Assembly (NCBI RefSeq): GCF_030817415.1
Contig: NZ_JAUSZI010000002.1
Coordinates: 11,755,501-11,819,500, forward strand
Direction: 5' to 3'
DNA: 64,000 nt
Origin: Streptomyces umbrinus
GTDB taxonomy: Bacteria > Actinomycetota > Actinomycetes > Streptomycetales > Streptomycetaceae
Both the position numbers and the translations under genes were made by a program. The notes below the pieces were generated by a model. It did no database searches, was not told where the DNA came from, and saw only the letters and a list, made by a program, of their open reading frames with translations. This document shows positions 35,137 to 41,726 of this stretch, one piece after another (position 1 is the stretch's first letter; every line of letters starts with the position of its first letter).

Positions 35137-35586
35137 TCACTTCCAGTCGCTGTTCGATGGCGCCGTCGCTGTTGGCTCCGTTTCTTGGGCGGCCGCTTGC
35201 TTGTGCTCGATGAGGGCCGTGGTACCGGCTACCACCGCAGAAAGAGCCACGGCGGCGGACAGCATGGTCGAGGTACGGCTGACGTCGCGCCGCAGGCCCG
35301 CAGCCAGGAAAGCGGCGGCATCGACCGAGTCCATGACGATGTTCACCGCAAGAAACTGCTGCTGCTGGGGCCGGGTGAAACTGTCCATCCGTTGCAGTCC
35401 AAGCCCGAGAGCAGCGTTGCGGATCGCGAACATCCGTGAATAAGGGATCGCGGGGGTACCGCTAGCCGTGAGCTGGAAAAACCGCGCGGCCAGCCGCGGG
35501 GTGAACAAGTGGGTGGCCGCGACGATGAAGCGCCCGGTCGTCAGCGCTCTGCGGGAAGGAACCAGGTGGAGGGGAAATTTGGACAT
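35137..35586 (-). CDS. small membrane protein downstream of the FAD-AOS fusion
   Basis: This is a 149-residue protein that I do not recognise. Two or three membrane-spanning stretches are likely: VSRTSTMLSAAVALSAVVAG is one, and AIRNAALGLGL and FLAVNIVMDSVDAAAFLAAG are weaker. The N-terminus is basic (SRRALTTGRF). The ATG at 35586 has AAAGGA 6 bases before it. It lies 119 bp after the fusion gene in the same direction and may be in its operon. Confidence 0.6.
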   Translation of the reverse strand: MSKFPLHLVPSRRALTTGRFIVAATHLFTPRLAARFFQLTASGTPAIPYSRMFAIRNAALGLGLQRMDSFTRPQQQQFLAVNIVMDSVDAAAFLAAGLRRDVSRTSTMLSAAVALSAVVAGTTALIEHKQAAAQETEPTATAPSNSDWK

Positions 35587-35616
35587 GGAGAATCCTTTCA
35601 ATCCGGAACGGGCCGG

Positions 35617-35705: not shown

Positions 35706-38342
35706 TCAGCGCGAGTCGGGGCGGGCGAGGCCCGAAGCGGCGTCGAGGCTGTCGATGGCGGTTCGGGCCTCGGACACCGCCGCGGCGATCGCGGCGGCGG
35801 CCTGCCCGGCTTGTTCGGGCGTGTGGGACGGCATGACCTGTAGGCGCAGTCTGGCGGAGCCGCTTGGCACCACGGGGTATTCGACGACCATGGCCGCCAC
35901 TCCGCGCGGGCGCAGATTACGGTGTGTGAGGCGTGCTACGCGTTCGTCGCCGATGACGGCGGGAACGATCGGACCCGGGCTGCCCAGGCAGGCCAGTCCG
36001 TGGTCGGCCAGAGCTTCACGCAGTGCCGACGCGGCGTCGAGTGTCTGCCGGCGCAGCCGTGCTCCTTCCGGGGACATCGCGATCCGCAATGCGGCGTCGG
36101 CTGCCGCGGCCTGGGCGGGCGACAAGGCGTTGGAGAAGACGTGCGAGGTGGCGTAGGTCTCGATGTAGCTTCGGACGGCGGGCGAGGCAGTGGCCACAAA
36201 GCCTCCGTTGGAGGCGAAGGTCTTGGAGAAGCTGCCCATCACCAGGTCGACTTGGCCGGCGAGCTGTTGGATCCCGATCTGGCCCTGCCCTCCGGGGCCG
36301 GTGGATCCGAGGTCGTGGGCGACGTCGACGAGGAGGGTCGCCTCGTACTCGTGGCAGATGTCCTGGAGCCGGGCGAGGTCGGGGCTGTCGGCGTTCATGG
36401 AGAAGAGGCCTTCGGTGACGACCAGAATGGCGTGGTGGGGATCCCGGTCGCGCAGTTCGCGCAGTACGGCGTGGACGGCTTCGTTGTCCAGGTGCGGCAC
36501 CCGGTGGACGTTGCGCGAGGCGGCGTGGGCCCCCTGGGAGAGGCTGGCGTGGGCATAGTGGTCCATGACCACGTGGTCGTAGTGGCGGACCAGGGCGTTG
36601 ATCGGTCCGTACGCGGCGGCCCAGCCGGTCGGGAAGAGGACGACATGGTCCGTTTCCACGAGTTCGGCGATGCTCTGTTCAAGGCGCCGGGAATGGACGG
36701 TGTTGCCGATGGCCGCTGCCGAACCGGCGCTGTGCACACCGAACTCGGCGATGGCGGCGGTCGCCGCCTCGACCACCTCGGGGTGGTTGCTCAGCCCCAG
36801 GTAATCCTGGGAGGCGAAGTTGATCCCCTCCAGGACCCGCCCACCGGCATCGAGGAGCCGGGTCGTGGACAGCGGCGCAGCGGCAAGGGTCCTGGAGTAC
36901 AGCCACGTCTCCGATTCGACGCGGGCGCTGTACCAGCGGTGGAACGGCTCCACCCGCTCCAGTAGTCGGCTGCCGGTCGGGGAGGCGAAGCTGCGCACCG
37001 TGTGAGTGAGTGCCAGGTGCTCGTCCTCCGCTGTGTCCTGTGCGGCGAACGGGTTGCTGTCGGACGCCACGGTCGGTTCGTCCGCCGGAGGGGCGACGCT
37101 GGAGTTCGAGGACAGGATGCGCTGCATGCTGTCGACGGAGAAGACGGCGTCGGGGTCGACCGTGTCGCTGAACACTCCGAGGAGTGTGCTGGCGTGGCGC
37201 AGGTCGGAGCTCGCCGCGCGGAACAGGTTTACCTCAGAGGCCTCTGTTGCCCGCATCTCGGCCTGGGAACAGACGAAGTCGTAGTACTTCCAGCTGTCGA
37301 GGTGACGGCGCTCGCGGTAGTCCGACAGCGACCTCGTGAGGTCGTCTCCGGCGGCGAGGGCGGGGCCAATGGTCTGGGCGAGCAGTTCGGCGTCCCTGAG
37401 GGCGTGCGTCATGCCGCTGGCGGTGGCTGGGTCCTTGAACGATGCCGCGTCCCCGACCAGAGCCCAGCCGTCGCCGGACACCTCGCGGATGAAGGGGGTC
37501 TGGTCGTTGGTCATGAAGAATCCGGAGACGCGTGTCGCGCCGTCGACCAGGGCCGCCATGTCTGGGCTGACGTAGTCCAGCGCCTGGGCGAAATGGGCCG
37601 CGCTGTCCTGCCGGAAGGCCTGGTACCAGTCACTGGGGCCGTAGACCAACGCCATCGTCTGGCCGCCGCTGGTCGGGCTTAACGCCATACCGAGACGCCC
37701 CCGGCGCCGGAGCGTGGGAACCTTCAGAAGGTGGCTGTCGAGGTATGTGTAGCAGGCGAAGGATCCGTTGCGCCGCACGTCCTTGCGCGCGGCGCCTGCC
37801 AGCCGTGCCACGTGCGAGCGGCGGCCGTCGGCGCCGACGACGATCCTGGCCCGCTTGGTCGTCTCGGGCCCGTCGGGGCTCGACCGCCACCGCACGCCCA
37901 CCACCCGGCCGTCCTCCTCGACCAGTTCGGTCATCCGCGCGCCCTGCCGGACCTCGACGCCGCACTCAGCCGCGTACGCGAGCAGCAGGTCGTCCAGCAG
38001 GTCGCGGCGGGCGGAGAATGAGGCGTTGACGACGTCCTTGTCGTCCCCGTGCAAGCTGCGGAATCGGTTACGCAGGTCCTCCTCCGCCACTCCGGAGCGG
38101 ATGCTGACGCCTTCGATCACCAGGTCCACCTCCTCGAAGAAGGGGGCCACCGGGACGACCCGGTCCAGGACGCCGAGTCGAGCCAGGTAGCTGGTGCCGC
38201 GGGGCCACATGAAGTGCGTCGAAAGCACGTCCTTGGGAAAAGTGTCCTTCTCCAGGAGGAGGACACTTCGCCCTTGTTTGCTGAGATGAGCTGCCGTGGC
38301 GGCGCCCGCCAGGCGCCCGCCCACCACTACAACGTCATACAT
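35706..38342 (-). CDS. FAD-dependent oxidoreductase fused to an alpha-oxoamine synthase
   Basis: This is an 878-residue fusion of two enzymes. About residues 1-400 are an FAD oxidoreductase of the halogenase/geranylgeranyl-reductase kind: VVVVGGRLAGAATAAHLSKQ (FAD motif), VVGADGRRSHVARLAG (DG motif) and WALVGDAASFKDPATASGMT (GD motif). A linker follows (about 400-490). The second part (about 490-870) is a PLP fold-type I alpha-oxoamine synthase, the family of AONS, KBL and serine palmitoyltransferase: NFASQDYLGLSNHPEVVEAA, MDHYAHASL, VDVAHDLGSTGPGGQG, and GSFSKTFASNGGF with the PLP lysine. The start ATG at 38342 follows GAAGGAG. I know of no close match; which thioester and amino acid it uses cannot be read. 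Confidence 0.82.
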   Translation of the reverse strand: MYDVVVVGGRLAGAATAAHLSKQGRSVLLLEKDTFPKDVLSTHFMWPRGTSYLARLGVLDRVVPVAPFFEEVDLVIEGVSIRSGVAEEDLRNRFRSLHGDDKDVVNASFSARRDLLDDLLLAYAAECGVEVRQGARMTELVEEDGRVVGVRWRSSPDGPETTKRARIVVGADGRRSHVARLAGAARKDVRRNGSFACYTYLDSHLLKVPTLRRRGRLGMALSPTSGGQTMALVYGPSDWYQAFRQDSAAHFAQALDYVSPDMAALVDGATRVSGFFMTNDQTPFIREVSGDGWALVGDAASFKDPATASGMTHALRDAELLAQTIGPALAAGDDLTRSLSDYRERRHLDSWKYYDFVCSQAEMRATEASEVNLFRAASSDLRHASTLLGVFSDTVDPDAVFSVDSMQRILSSNSSVAPPADEPTVASDSNPFAAQDTAEDEHLALTHTVRSFASPTGSRLLERVEPFHRWYSARVESETWLYSRTLAAAPLSTTRLLDAGGRVLEGINFASQDYLGLSNHPEVVEAATAAIAEFGVHSAGSAAAIGNTVHSRRLEQSIAELVETDHVVLFPTGWAAAYGPINALVRHYDHVVMDHYAHASLSQGAHAASRNVHRVPHLDNEAVHAVLRELRDRDPHHAILVVTEGLFSMNADSPDLARLQDICHEYEATLLVDVAHDLGSTGPGGQGQIGIQQLAGQVDLVMGSFSKTFASNGGFVATASPAVRSYIETYATSHVFSNALSPAQAAAADAALRIAMSPEGARLRRQTLDAASALREALADHGLACLGSPGPIVPAVIGDERVARLTHRNLRPRGVAAMVVEYPVVPSGSARLRLQVMPSHTPEQAGQAAAAIAAAVSEARTAIDSLDAASGLARPDSR

Positions 38343-38400
38343 GGTGCTCCTTCAACATGCCTGTTTTGCTTGCTTGTTCAAGTATGTTGATCAACAATGA
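38343..38400 (-). promoter_or_regulatory. promoter/operator region of the fusion gene
   Basis: This A+T-richer stretch holds a perfect palindrome, TGTTGATCAACA, at about 38383-38394. Another TCAACAT/ATGTTGA pair spans the leader. The palindrome is near the place where a -35 box would lie, so a repressor could act there. The IS1182 remnant begins directly after it. Confidence 0.5.
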
Positions 38401-38640: not shown

Positions 38641-38811
38641 CCAACAGGTTCGCCAGGCCGGCTGCGCTGGCCTCCTCGGTGGGGGGAAAATCGGGGTGGG
38701 CGCCCGGTAAGCCGAAGACTCTGTGATGCCGGTCAGCTCGCCCAACAGGATGGCGATGGGGATCCGCTAGCGGACTTCGGTTTGCGCCACGGCCACCACG
38801 GTGACCGGCAG

Positions 38812-40190
38812 CGCGTGTGTCAGACTCAGCGACTTCCCGGATCCCTCCGGGCGCCCGTTCGATCGGCACGCGTGCGGGAGGGACACGGCGATGGCCAGAC
38901 AGGACGTGAAGGACGAGGTCCTCTATCTGCGGGCGGCGGGGCTGGATCTGGGCAAGCGGTTCCTGCTGGCGTGCGTACGCACGCCGTGCTTGAAGCGGCC
39001 GGGAACCTGGACGCTGGAGACCGAGCGGTTCGCCACCACCCCGGCCGAGATCCGGCGTCTGCTGGCCTGGCTACTCGAGCGCCGGGTCGAGGTGGTGGTG
39101 CTCGAGGCCACCTCGGACTACTGGCGCCACCTCTACTACACCTTGCAGCCGCATCTGAACCTGATGCTGGTCAACCCGGCCCACCTCAAGGGCATTCGGG
39201 GGCGCAAGAGCGACCCCAGCGACGCCGCGTTCCTGGCCCGGGCGGGCGCCTCGGGCATGGTGATGGGCTCCTTCGTGCCCGAGCGGGAGATCCGCGAACT
39301 GCGGGACCTGACCCGCCGCCGCACGCAGCTCATCACGGCACGCGGGCAGGAGGCCCAGCGGCTGGAGAAGGAACTCGAGGACACCGGCATGAAGCTGTCC
39401 TCGGTGCTCAGCGACATCACCGGGGCCAGCGGACGCGCCATCATCAACGCACTGATCGGCGGCGAGCGTGACCCCCAGGCGCTGGCCGACCTGGCCATCC
39501 GGCGGGCCCGCAGCAAGATCCCGGCCCTGGTTGAGGCACTGGACGGCACGTTCACCGAGCACCACGCGTTCATGTGCCGGCACTACCTCGACGAGATCGA
39601 CCACCTCACCGCCACGGCCGACCAGCTGGACCAGCGGATCACCGCGCTGCTGACCCGCCTGGAGCACAACAAGGACATCGAGAACCTGGACACCATCCCC
39701 GGCATCGGCCCCGCGGCGGCTGAGATCATCATCGCTGAGACCGGTGGGGACATGACCCAGTTCGCCACCGCCGGCCATCTCGCCTCCTGGATCGGGGTCT
39801 GCCCGGGCATGAACGAATCCGCCGGCGTCACCAAATCCGCCCGTACCCGCAACGGCAACAGCAACCTGAAACGGCTGTTGGGCATCGCCGCGATGTCGGT
39901 GACCCGGAACAAGGACTGCTATCTCAGCGCCTACTACCGGCGCATCGCCGCCCGCCGCGGACGACAGCGGGCCCTGGTCGCGGTGATGCGCAAACTCGCC
40001 GTCGCGATCTGGCACATCCTCCGCCACAAGACCCGCTACCAGGACCTCGGCGCCGACTACTTCACCCGCCGCGACCCTGAACGCGCCATGCGTCGCATGA
40101 CCAAGGAAGCCAACCGCCTCGGCCTCACCGTCCGCTTCGAGCCCATCGCAGCAACGGCCTGACCAGCACACTCACTCAACTTTTCGTGTC
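38812..40190 (+). mobile_element. IS110-family element
   Basis: This is an approximate element boundary around the intact transposase. A repeated GTGTCAGA block lies about 70 bp before the gene (about 38816) and after it (about 40187). IS110 elements have no inverted repeats and carry a non-coding bridge-RNA region; the 80-bp leader is a candidate for part of it, but I could not define it. The exact ends need comparison with other copies. Confidence 0.6.
38891..40162 (+). CDS. IS110-family transposase, intact
   Basis: This is a full-length IS110 recombinase of 423 residues. The DEDD_Tnp domain carries Asp in RAAGLDLGKRF (about 19), Glu in LEATSDYW and Asp in KSDPSDA. The C-terminal transposase_20 domain includes the IPGIGPAAAEIIIAETGGD block with its HhH fold and the later ESAGVTKSARTRNGNSN. 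The serine nucleophile would lie in the latter. The start ATG at 38891 has GGGAGG nearby. No frameshift is seen. Confidence 0.9.
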   Translation: MARQDVKDEVLYLRAAGLDLGKRFLLACVRTPCLKRPGTWTLETERFATTPAEIRRLLAWLLERRVEVVVLEATSDYWRHLYYTLQPHLNLMLVNPAHLKGIRGRKSDPSDAAFLARAGASGMVMGSFVPEREIRELRDLTRRRTQLITARGQEAQRLEKELEDTGMKLSSVLSDITGASGRAIINALIGGERDPQALADLAIRRARSKIPALVEALDGTFTEHHAFMCRHYLDEIDHLTATADQLDQRITALLTRLEHNKDIENLDTIPGIGPAAAEIIIAETGGDMTQFATAGHLASWIGVCPGMNESAGVTKSARTRNGNSNLKRLLGIAAMSVTRNKDCYLSAYYRRIAARRGRQRALVAVMRKLAVAIWHILRHKTRYQDLGADYFTRRDPERAMRRMTKEANRLGLTVRFEPIAATA

Positions 40191-40306: not shown

Positions 40307-41029
40307 TCAGAGCTCGGCGACGACGCGTCGTAGTGTGCCGGGCGCGATGCGCAGCATGGCGGGCATGACTTTCGTCTGACCGGGGAATGCCATGTTCCGC
40401 CCCCGCCGAAGAGCTTTCATCGTGACCGCTGCCACCTGTGCGGGAGTCAGTTTCTTCCCCGTGGCTTCGGCGTTCATGGGCGTGTCTGTAGACGGTGGGA
40501 GGACCTCGAGGACATGGGTGTGACTCTGCGGGGCGAGTTGACGGCGCAAGCCGTCCGCAAAGCCGTGCAGGCCGGCCTTCACCGCGCCGTGGGTAGGCGC
40601 GCGAGTGGGCGAGACCAAAGCGAACCCCGAGGTGATGAATACGATCGCGTCGAGCGATGGCCATCGCTCGAGCACTTCACCCGTCAAGTGGATGGGGGCG
40701 GTGAGGTTTAGCGCCACCTCGTCATCGAGAGTCGCGTTGGGGTTCTTGCCGGCGGCATAGTCTCGTTCCTCGAACGTACCGGCGTTGTTGACCAACACGT
40801 CCAAACGCCCGAAGCGATCAGCGACTGCTTGCAACAACGCTGCCCGATCGGCTGCGTCCGTCACATCGGCCCGCACGGCCAGCGCCTGCGGGTGTGCCTG
40901 CGCGAATCGGTCAAGCGCAGCCTGCGAACGCCCGCAAACGACGACAGACGCCCCGAGCTCCACGAAGGATTGCGCGAGGCTCAAGCCGATGCCTGAGGTT
41001 CCGCCAGTGATGAGTACGGTCTGTGACAC
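40307..41029 (-). CDS. SDR-family oxidoreductase
   Basis: This is a 240-residue short-chain dehydrogenase of the DltE type. The motif TGGTSGIG is at residue 8, VNNAG near 84, and the catalytic region FITSGFALVSPTRAPTHGAVK at about 137-158 has a His where the usual Tyr of YxxxK stands (THGAVK). This substitution could affect catalysis. I chose the GTG at 41029, with GAGAGG about 7 bases before it. It is divergent from the TetR gene, and both share the operator region 41050-41099. Confidence 0.85.
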   Translation of the reverse strand: MSQTVLITGGTSGIGLSLAQSFVELGASVVVCGRSQAALDRFAQAHPQALAVRADVTDAADRAALLQAVADRFGRLDVLVNNAGTFEERDYAAGKNPNATLDDEVALNLTAPIHLTGEVLERWPSLDAIVFITSGFALVSPTRAPTHGAVKAGLHGFADGLRRQLAPQSHTHVLEVLPPSTDTPMNAEATGKKLTPAQVAAVTMKALRRGRNMAFPGQTKVMPAMLRIAPGTLRRVVAEL

Positions 41030-41049
41030 GATGTCACCTCTCGCTATAA

Positions 41050-41099
41050 CGTACTGATTGGTACGAAATACTTTAGCACGCCCGTACCGATCGGTATCG
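41050..41099. promoter_or_regulatory. tandem TetR operators
   Basis: CGTACTGATTGGTACG lies at 41050-41065, and CGTACCGATCGGTATCG at 41083-41099. The two sites share CGTAC(C/T)GAT(C/T)GGTA, and their centres are about 33 bp apart. They sit between the SDR and TetR genes, so TetR likely represses both. Confidence 0.7.
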
Positions 41100-41117
41100 A
41101 AGGGGTAGGGTGAAGAA

Positions 41118-41726
41118 ATGTGCTCGACGACACCGACCCCTCCTGGCAGGCCTCGCGCGTTCGACATCGACGAGGCACTCGATCGTGCAGTCCTGGTGTT
41201 CTGGTCAAAGGGTTTCGAGGGCGCCAGCCTTGACGACCTCACCGAAGCGATGGGTATCAGCCGCCCCAGCCTGTACAGGGCCTTCGGTAGCAAAGAAGAC
41301 CTCTTCCACAAGGCGCTGGAGCGGTACACCGAGGGCTTGACCGCCTACTTCGCCCGAGCTCTGGCAGAGCCCACAAGTGCAGCAGTGGCTACTGCCGTGC
41401 TCCACGGGGCGGTCGAGGCGGCAACCATGCCGGGATTGCCCACGGGCTGCCTTGGCGTGCAGGGTGCGTTGGTCACCGGGGACGAGAGCCGCCCAGTCCG
41501 AGACGCACTCATCGCATGGCGCGAGGATGGGATAGCCCACTTGACGCGCCGGTTTCAACAGGCGGTGGACGCCGGTGACCTTCCGCCTTCCGCAGATCCT
41601 CATCTTCTTGCGCTCTACCTGAGAACAGTCGCCAATGGGATTGCCGTCCAGGCCGCGAGTGGTAGTTCCCGCCCTGAGCTGCTGCAAGTCGCGAACCTCG
41701 CGTTGGGCAGCTGGCCAAAGCCGTAG
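41118..41726 (+). CDS. TetR-family regulator
   Basis: This 202-residue protein begins with a TetR HTH (LDDLTEAMGISRPSLYRAFG SKEDLFHKAL, about residues 37-66). The C-terminal domain resembles the YxaF/LmrA group (PTGCLGVQGALVTGDESRPV), including the Cys of that motif. It is divergent from the SDR gene and should bind the operators at 41050-41099. Confidence 0.88.
   Translation: MCSTTPTPPGRPRAFDIDEALDRAVLVFWSKGFEGASLDDLTEAMGISRPSLYRAFGSKEDLFHKALERYTEGLTAYFARALAEPTSAAVATAVLHGAVEAATMPGLPTGCLGVQGALVTGDESRPVRDALIAWREDGIAHLTRRFQQAVDAGDLPPSADPHLLALYLRTVANGIAVQAASGSSRPELLQVANLALGSWPKP

What the first reader, a model, noticed from the sequence alone, without database searches (positions are those of the whole stretch)
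35706..38342. FAD oxidoreductase fused to an alpha-oxoamine synthase
A single 878-residue frame joins an FAD-dependent oxidoreductase to a PLP-dependent alpha-oxoamine synthase; all cofactor motifs of both halves appear intact (FAD GxGxxG region, GD motif, PLP lysine in GSFSKTFASNGG). I know of no described enzyme with this architecture. The domains are standard, but the fusion suggests that a decarboxylative condensation product is oxidised, or a substrate prepared, without release. There is no acyl carrier protein nearby.
Basis: partly seen in the sequence, partly recalled or inferred. Interest (0 to 1): 0.75.

Follow-up and report, generated by a model that had tools for sequence, protein, structure and literature searches.

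The report
Flavoenzyme fused to oxoamine synthase
A soil bacterium's gene joins two enzymes, one of a kind that builds small amino-ketone molecules and one that oxidises things with a flavin, into a single protein shared by distantly related bacteria; its relatives hint that it makes a small signal-like molecule, which has not been tested here.

Summary
The fusion is real. Window 35706-38342 (-) encodes 878 residues: a class A-type FAD oxidoreductase (1-~433) joined to an alpha-oxoamine synthase (AOS, ~434-878). A search listed 44 full-length fused clusters (40-98% identity; at least four phyla by record titles). PLP Lys707, His598, Asp673, His676, Arg833 and the FAD DG and GD motifs are invariant in 44 aligned rows. 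AlphaFold2: pLDDT 90.7, pTM 0.90. In Micromonospora, some Streptomyces and other actinomycetes the halves are adjacent genes; split FAD genes end within the stretch that is the fusion's linker.

Best functional clue: in Allokutzneria the same kind of FAD gene lies next to a different AOS, one that passes the curated cut-off for CqsA/LqsA-type alpha-hydroxyketone autoinducer synthases. Cousins of the fused AOS carry response-regulator domains or lie beside a histidine kinase. I infer a two-step synthase: the AOS makes an alpha-aminoketone, the FAD half oxidises it. Substrates, product and signalling are untested; the AOS half itself misses the CqsA, BioF, Kbl and SPT cut-offs, and the FAD half lacks halogenase motifs. 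No paper on this fusion appeared in the open-access listings seen. New variant of known kinds; interest 0.58.

The parts
35706..38342 (-). FAD oxidoreductase / alpha-oxoamine synthase fusion, 878 aa
   Evidence: ORF; Pfam; 44 full-length fused clusters; alignments A1/A3; AF2 model pLDDT 90.7, pTM 0.90
37044..38342 (-). FAD module, residues 1-433; split homologues stop at the equivalent of N-P-F (residues 431-433)
   Evidence: Pfam FAD_binding_3 2-356; ends of 16 split FAD genes
37023..37112 (-). junction/linker, residues 411-440, the weakest internal part of the model (block pLDDT 65-68) and variable in the family
35706..37043 (-). alpha-oxoamine synthase (AOS) module, residues 434-878 plus stop
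36222..36224 (-). codon of PLP lysine K707 (MGSFSK707TFASNGG)
   Evidence: aligned to the lysine of Kbl/BioF/SPT; 44 of 44
38347..38352 (-). ribosome-binding site AAGGAG before the ATG
   Evidence: sequence
38385..38396 (.). 12-bp perfect palindrome TGTTGATCAACA upstream of the start; possible operator, function not tested

Best explanation
A bifunctional two-step synthase of a small alpha-aminoketone-derived molecule of the alpha-hydroxyketone (CAI-1/LAI-1) type. Step 1 (inferred from conserved residues): the PLP half condenses an acyl thioester, probably an acyl-CoA since no carrier-protein motif is in the window, with an alpha-amino acid, loses CO2 and releases an alpha-aminoketone. Step 2 (inferred): the FAD half oxidises that product, most simply by removing two hydrogens at the C-N or C-alpha/C-beta bond to an imine/enaminone that can hydrolyse to an alpha-diketone. 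This would fill the step from saturated aminoketone to CAI-1 that PMC3376566 calls 'an unknown mechanism'. Shown: the two modules, conserved cofactor residues, fused and split forms, genetic linkage, and one partner exchange with a CqsA-type enzyme. Inferred: substrates, order of steps, kind of oxidation, and biological role (signal or other secondary metabolite).
For: (1) Linkage. Of 25 genome-contig loci with an FAD relative, 6 are fused and 13 have the AOS as next co-directional gene. In genome samples every close FAD gene has an AOS-type gene fused or directly downstream: 4 of 4 found in 392 Streptomyces (E <= 1e-150), 3 of 3 in 394 Actinomycetes, 8 of 8 in 180 genomes of G635's family; the own genome and G635 each lie in two samples. 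Control: of 11 fetched loci with only a distant FAD paralogue (33-37%), 0 has an AOS hit in the flanks held, up to about 1.5 kb on each side. (2) Partner exchange: the eighth, Allokutzneria (L040 = G844), has 15 bases downstream a 379-aa AOS scoring 444.5 bits to NF005526 'alpha-hydroxyketone-type quorum-sensing autoinducer synthase' (cut-off 428), the only genome of the 180 with a match over that cut-off. Its FAD protein falls inside the clade of split pairs (100*). (3) Split pairs lie in mostly unlike surroundings. (4) The AOS clade is tied to regulators: 51 of 120 listed homologues carry a receiver domain, 2 a cNMP-binding domain; Pseudorhodobacter L061 has AOS-histidine kinase-response regulator, as described for jqsA/jqsS/jqsR (PMC3566124, passages); Salipiger has a LuxR-type regulator before the AOS. 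(5) Conserved residues 44 of 44. (6) FAD and AOS trees share many subgroups, compared by eye.
Against: The window's AOS scores only 157.8 bits to NF005526 (cut-off 428) and more to BioF (277.4), so it is not itself a CqsA/LqsA equivalog. No sensor kinase or regulator is conserved beside the FAD-AOS pair: annotated neighbours differ from locus to locus (not every neighbour was annotated). Allokutzneria's operon continues with a P450 (PF00067), which suits a secondary metabolite as well as a signal. The partner exchange rests on one genome. The receiver, LuxR and kinase links of (4) belong to cousins without the FAD half; near fused genes I saw two cNMP-binding ORFs (L023, one directly downstream, one two genes upstream), a sigma-70-like ORF downstream (L038) and a TPR-histidine-kinase ORF 2.7 kb off on the other strand (L024), each in one locus. 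Five of the 25 loci have no AOS: L039 and L041 (38-40% identity) lie in a different cluster, so the flavin chemistry may suit another nitrogen substrate. No assay exists.
Confidence: 0.48

Rival explanations
1. The FAD half acts first: it oxidises or hydroxylates the amino acid or acyl substrate, which the AOS half then condenses.
For: Domain order FAD then AOS, and gene order FAD then AOS in the split pairs seen; DG and GD motifs of class A monooxygenases are present.
Against: Gene order says little about reaction order; many members of the AOS clade lack the FAD half (76 of 120 listed, one of them a fusion fragment), so the clade does not generally need a prepared substrate.
Confidence: 0.17
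2. The pair makes a secondary metabolite (pyrrole, pyrazine or similar amino-ketone-derived compound) with no signalling role.
For: AOS enzymes 33-35% identical to the window (H6, H9) lie in clusters with the gene order of one whose neighbours are named PigD and RedY (31% to P0110); an AOS cousin at 48% in S. clavuligerus pCLA1 lies beside a ketosynthase and what reads like an NRPS gene; P450 in the Allokutzneria operon.
Against: No PKS, NRPS or carrier gene among the annotated neighbours of fused or split FAD-AOS, and no ACP motif in the window; neighbours were annotated only in part.
Confidence: 0.2
3. The FAD half is not catalytic but a redox-sensing regulatory domain for the AOS, as the receiver and cNMP-binding domains of its cousins presumably are.
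For: Same AOS clade fused to PF00072 and PF00027 domains.
Against: The FAD half keeps invariant residues beyond the FAD motifs (S41, H43, R48, D304 and others), occurs as a separate gene, and accompanies a different AOS in Allokutzneria.
Confidence: 0.08
4. The FAD half is a flavin-dependent halogenase.
Against: The lysine of FasV, Bmp2 and Mpy16 aligns with E70/E71 (that of 3e1t, by its gaps, with I76); lysine stands there in 6, 1 and 0 of 44 rows. WxWxIP, seen in 3e1t, FasV and Bmp2, has no tryptophan in residues 214-231 of the 44 rows.
Confidence: 0.03
5. The FAD half is a reductase of the geranylgeranyl-reductase type acting on an unsaturated acyl chain before or after condensation.
For: TIGR02032 GG-red-SF matches residues 2-189 (84.9 bits).
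Against: Below that family's cut-off (158.8) and only over the FAD-binding part.
Confidence: 0.04

Closest known systems
alpha-oxoamine synthases (Kbl, BioF, SPT, ALAS)
   Different: Below the curated cut-offs (BioF 277.4/426.45, Kbl 219.6/460, SPT 212.8/640, ALAS 177.9/338.55); H537 where Kbl, BioF and SPT have Gly and Q512 where they have Asn, both invariant also in 10 mixed members of the clade; FAD module fused
CqsA/LqsA/JqsA alpha-hydroxyketone autoinducer synthases
   Same: Enzyme class; a CqsA-type enzyme over the NF005526 cut-off takes the AOS place beside the same kind of FAD gene in Allokutzneria; one AOS cousin has a kinase and response regulator next to it
   Different: Window AOS scores 157.8 of 428; no conserved sensor found next to the fusion
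flavin-dependent halogenases (3e1t, FasV, Bmp2, Mpy16, PltA)
   Same: Closest solved sequences and folds to the FAD half
   Different: Halogenase lysine and WxWxIP missing
BioWF, a natural fusion with an AOS (PMC9544090, search listing and abstract start only)
   Same: AOS fused to the enzyme of a neighbouring step
   Different: Partner is a pimeloyl-CoA synthetase, not a flavoenzyme

Membership tests
alpha-oxoamine synthase superfamily (fold type I) | PLP-binding lysine and stacking histidine | tested here: met
   K707 and H598 align with Kbl/BioF/SPT, 44 of 44; roles recalled
alpha-oxoamine synthase superfamily (fold type I) | Asp/His pair at the PLP ring and C-terminal carboxylate Arg | tested here: met
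   D673, H676, R833, 44 of 44; roles recalled
alpha-oxoamine synthase superfamily (fold type I) | decarboxylative acyl condensation activity | not testable with these tools
   needs assay
CqsA/LqsA equivalog (NF005526) | score at or above 428 bits | tested here: not met
   window AOS 157.8 bits; the Allokutzneria partner of the FAD gene meets it, 444.5
CqsA/LqsA-type quorum-sensing system | cognate sensor kinase encoded beside the synthase | tested here: inconclusive
   no kinase directly beside a fused or split FAD-AOS among the neighbours annotated, one TPR-kinase ORF 2.7 kb off in L024; not every neighbour was annotated; present for the AOS cousin L061
BioF equivalog (TIGR00858) | score at or above 426.45 | tested here: not met
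   277.4 bits
serine palmitoyltransferase (NF047600) | score at or above 640 | tested here: not met
   212.8 bits
Kbl, glycine C-acetyltransferase (NF005394) | score at or above 460 | tested here: not met
   219.6 bits
class A flavoprotein oxidoreductase (PF01494) | Pfam gathering score and DG/GD motifs | tested here: met
   83.8 bits against 22; D172-G173 and G297-D298, 44 of 44
class A flavoprotein oxidoreductase (PF01494) | NAD(P)H-dependent oxygenation | not testable with these tools
   needs assay
flavin-dependent halogenase | catalytic lysine (GFxxKxG-like in the solved relatives) and WxWxIP | tested here: not met
   that this lysine is the catalytic one is recalled

The most novel reading that the evidence does not exclude
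A previously undescribed family of one-protein (or two-gene) signal synthases, spread over at least four phyla, that makes an alpha-hydroxyketone/aminoketone-type signal by PLP condensation followed by flavin oxidation; it would give actinomycetes and Bacteroidota a CAI-1-like language and supply an enzyme for the amino-to-keto step of that chemistry.
Probability: 0.27. Interest if true: 0.8.

Novelty: new variant of a known kind. Interest (0 to 1): 0.58.

Why it matters
It joins two cofactor chemistries, PLP condensation and flavin oxidation, in one chain for which I found no description, in a unit small enough to express and test at once. If the product is of the CAI-1 type, it would explain how a saturated aminoketone becomes a diketone/hydroxyketone and would extend this signal class to actinomycetes. 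If it is not, it is still a promising biocatalyst: an AOS with a built-in flavin oxidation step. The split/fused series and the Allokutzneria partner exchange make the division of labour directly testable.

Tried and rejected
Sequencing error or chance ORF: rejected. Halogenase: rejected on motifs. BioF/Kbl/SPT identity: cut-offs missed. Role of the SDR gene (40307-41329) and TetR gene (41118-41726) upstream: part of the SDR stretch is also in L021, but an IS110 copy separates it from the fusion in the window; an SDR also lies directly downstream of the split pair in L056 but not in L057 (a phosphatase on the other strand), so not used. Conserved neighbours of split pairs: little beyond 150-180 bp upstream in several Micromonospora; exceptions are 0.8 kb downstream shared by L033 and L036, short upstream matches among L026, L027 and L034, and the near-identical flanks of L057/L058. 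N-N-bond-type cluster around L039/L041: no AOS there, not used for function. Other fused loci (L022, L024, L037, L038): neighbours not informative. VIA-align and Foldseek rows are mostly AOS structures, so the FAD half was ranked only through the few rows that reach it; I did not fold it alone. The model's coordinates are not readable, so the distance between the two active sites was not measured. ORF calling by GC3 alone misplaced several genes; a codon-usage caller was written, which put the fusion's start at 38210, but homologues support 38342. Rows: tree 47 used the window and P0002-P0044 (P0001, 98% identical, left out), 17 other AOS proteins and 16 split pairs; most of the rows labelled 'alone' that fall in the split clade are probably split pairs (P0063 groups with L033), but I could not see their contexts. 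A2 holds the window and 8 of the 44 fused clusters; A1 the window and 23. Paper listings were capped: 20 of 145 shown, 15 of 25 (59), 15 of 212 (68), 12 of 23 (90), 12 of 29 (91).

Full report
OBSERVATION. The window (64 kb, 61.5-72.7% GC in 2-kb steps) lies in an unnamed 12.4-Mb genome; its nearest named match is a Streptomyces (L021), so it is probably one. ORF 35706-38342 (-) is open for 878 codons with a good ribosome-binding site. Pfam finds FAD_binding_3 (2-356) and Aminotran_1_2 (506-852). A stretch of 3.9 kb, 97.7% identical and fused in the same way, is present in Streptomyces sp. AC555_RSS877 (L021).

FAMILY. A search of about 5.8 billion proteins gave 346 hits, of which 120 are listed: 44 clusters of full-length fusions (P0001-P0044, 98 to 40% identity), one fusion fragment (P0045), 51 with a response-regulator domain, 2 with a cNMP-binding domain and 22 with no extra Pfam domain (only proteins of 0.55-1.75 times the query length are candidates). 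Named sources cover Streptomyces, Kitasatospora (on a plasmid), Flavivirga and a Bdellovibrio MAG, with an Aquimarina, two Flavobacteriaceae and an Archangium MAG from genome contigs: at least four phyla by record titles. Searching with the AOS half alone gave 5676 hits among 7997 scored candidates; the best 120 are 51-57% identical.

FUSED AND SPLIT. Of 25 loci found with the FAD half, tblastn shows 6 fused (L021-L024, L037, L038), 13 Micromonospora loci with FAD and AOS as adjacent co-directional genes, 1 (L040) with a different AOS-like gene, and 5 without an AOS hit: L039 and L041 (38-40% identity) and L043-L045 (33-35%). In 16 split loci the FAD protein ends in YQQN[PLM]FA (13 Micromonospora) or YLRNPFS (3 Streptomyces), the equivalent of N431-P-F433 of the fusion; the called AOS gene starts within a few tens of bases or overlaps by 1-4. 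The split AOS has about 80-120 N-terminal residues that the fusion lacks. Close FAD genes occur in 4 of 392 Streptomyces genomes (the window's fusion and three split pairs; 101 genomes hold some FAD relative at E <= 1e-60), 3 of 394 Actinomycetes genomes and 8 of 180 genomes of G635's family; each has an AOS-type gene fused or next to it (the own genome and G635 each appear in two samples). As a control, 11 fetched loci with only a distant FAD paralogue (33-37%) show no AOS hit in the flanks held, up to about 1.5 kb on each side. The converse fails: in the 394, one of four genomes with the AOS clade lacks a close FAD gene (G729), and 8 of the 12 Streptomyces genomes with the AOS clade have a more distant AOS (41-42%) without one. 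Around split pairs, similarity between loci mostly ends near the ends of the two genes, with the exceptions told under Tried and rejected. AOS and FAD trees share many subgroups by eye; the split pairs fall into one clade in both, together with rows of unseen context (100*; quick method, SH-aLRT only).

FUNCTION. Three lines bear on it. First, company: each close FAD gene of the genome samples had an AOS-type gene with it, distant paralogues did not. Second, partner exchange: in Allokutzneria (L040, identical to G844) the gene directly downstream of the FAD gene scores 444.5 bits to NF005526 (cut-off 428), the CqsA/LqsA-type autoinducer synthase, the only match over the cut-off in 180 genomes of that family; a P450 gene follows, overlapping by a base. 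Third, several associations of the AOS clade are regulatory: receiver-AOS and cNMP-AOS fusions, AOS-histidine kinase-receiver on a Pseudorhodobacter plasmid, a LuxR-type regulator before the AOS in Salipiger, and two cNMP-binding ORFs near the fused gene in L023. JqsA, JqsS and JqsR are linked in a like way (PMC3566124, passages). PMC3376566 (passages) says that CqsA makes an aminoketone from decanoyl-CoA and (S)-2-aminobutyrate, or an enaminone from SAM, and that the former becomes CAI-1 by an unknown mechanism. A flavin oxidation of the aminoketone would be such a mechanism. I therefore rate an aminoketone-then-oxidation synthase of this chemical type as most likely (0.48), with signalling as its possible but unproven use.

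AGAINST. The window's AOS is far below the CqsA cut-off (157.8 bits) and no receptor was found conserved next to FAD-AOS; the neighbours annotated are a mixed lot. One genome carries the partner exchange. AOS enzymes 33-35% identical lie in prodigiosin-type clusters, and a 48% identical cousin on S. clavuligerus pCLA1 lies by a ketosynthase and what reads like an NRPS gene, so natural-product roles occur among relatives.

LITERATURE. Searches of the open-access library listed no paper that describes an FAD-AOS fusion, judged from titles and abstract starts of capped lists; most subscription papers are not held. Two papers were read in passages.

Noticed in passing
window 38648-40189: An IS110-type element (transposase ORF up to 40162) present in the window and absent from the otherwise matching L021 sequence: about 1.54 kb inserted upstream of the fusion.
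   Followed up: partly
L061:7962-11342: Pseudorhodobacter plasmid: AOS of the same clade followed by a histidine kinase with a hydrophobic N-terminal part and a response regulator, like cqsA-cqsS / jqsA-jqsS-jqsR.
   Followed up: partly
P0062-P0120 (51 of the 120 proteins listed): Response-regulator receiver domains fused to the AOS clade: a synthase apparently under direct phosphorelay control; contexts not seen.
   Followed up: no
L039:5365-17449 and L041: A relative of the FAD half in a cluster that shares, in two MAGs of different phyla, a cupin-methionyl-tRNA-synthetase-like fusion, a Lys/Orn N-monooxygenase-like gene, a DAO-type flavoenzyme, MatE and ATP-grasp genes (adenylation and PLP-decarboxylase genes annotated in L039), like N-N bond-forming pathways (that likeness is recalled).
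   Followed up: partly
L059:4678-11978: S. clavuligerus pCLA1: cluster without annotation in this collection, with what reads like an NRPS gene, a ketosynthase, an AOS of this clade and a following 224-aa ORF without a Pfam match.
   Followed up: no
window 35137-35601 (-): 154-codon ORF with two weakly hydrophobic stretches, about 100 bases downstream of the fusion and also in L021; no Pfam or NCBIfam match.
   Followed up: partly
window 38385-38396: Perfect 12-bp palindrome TGTTGATCAACA between the fusion and the IS element, a possible operator.
   Followed up: no
L040:12361-13614: P450 gene (PF00067) overlapping the end of the CqsA-type gene in the FAD operon of Allokutzneria, amid genes that read like trp/his biosynthesis.
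   Followed up: partly
L056:6799-7578: Short-chain dehydrogenase gene on the same strand directly downstream of the split FAD-AOS pair in one unnamed Streptomyces genome; a dehydrogenase is the last step to CAI-1 (PMC3376566, passages).
   Followed up: no
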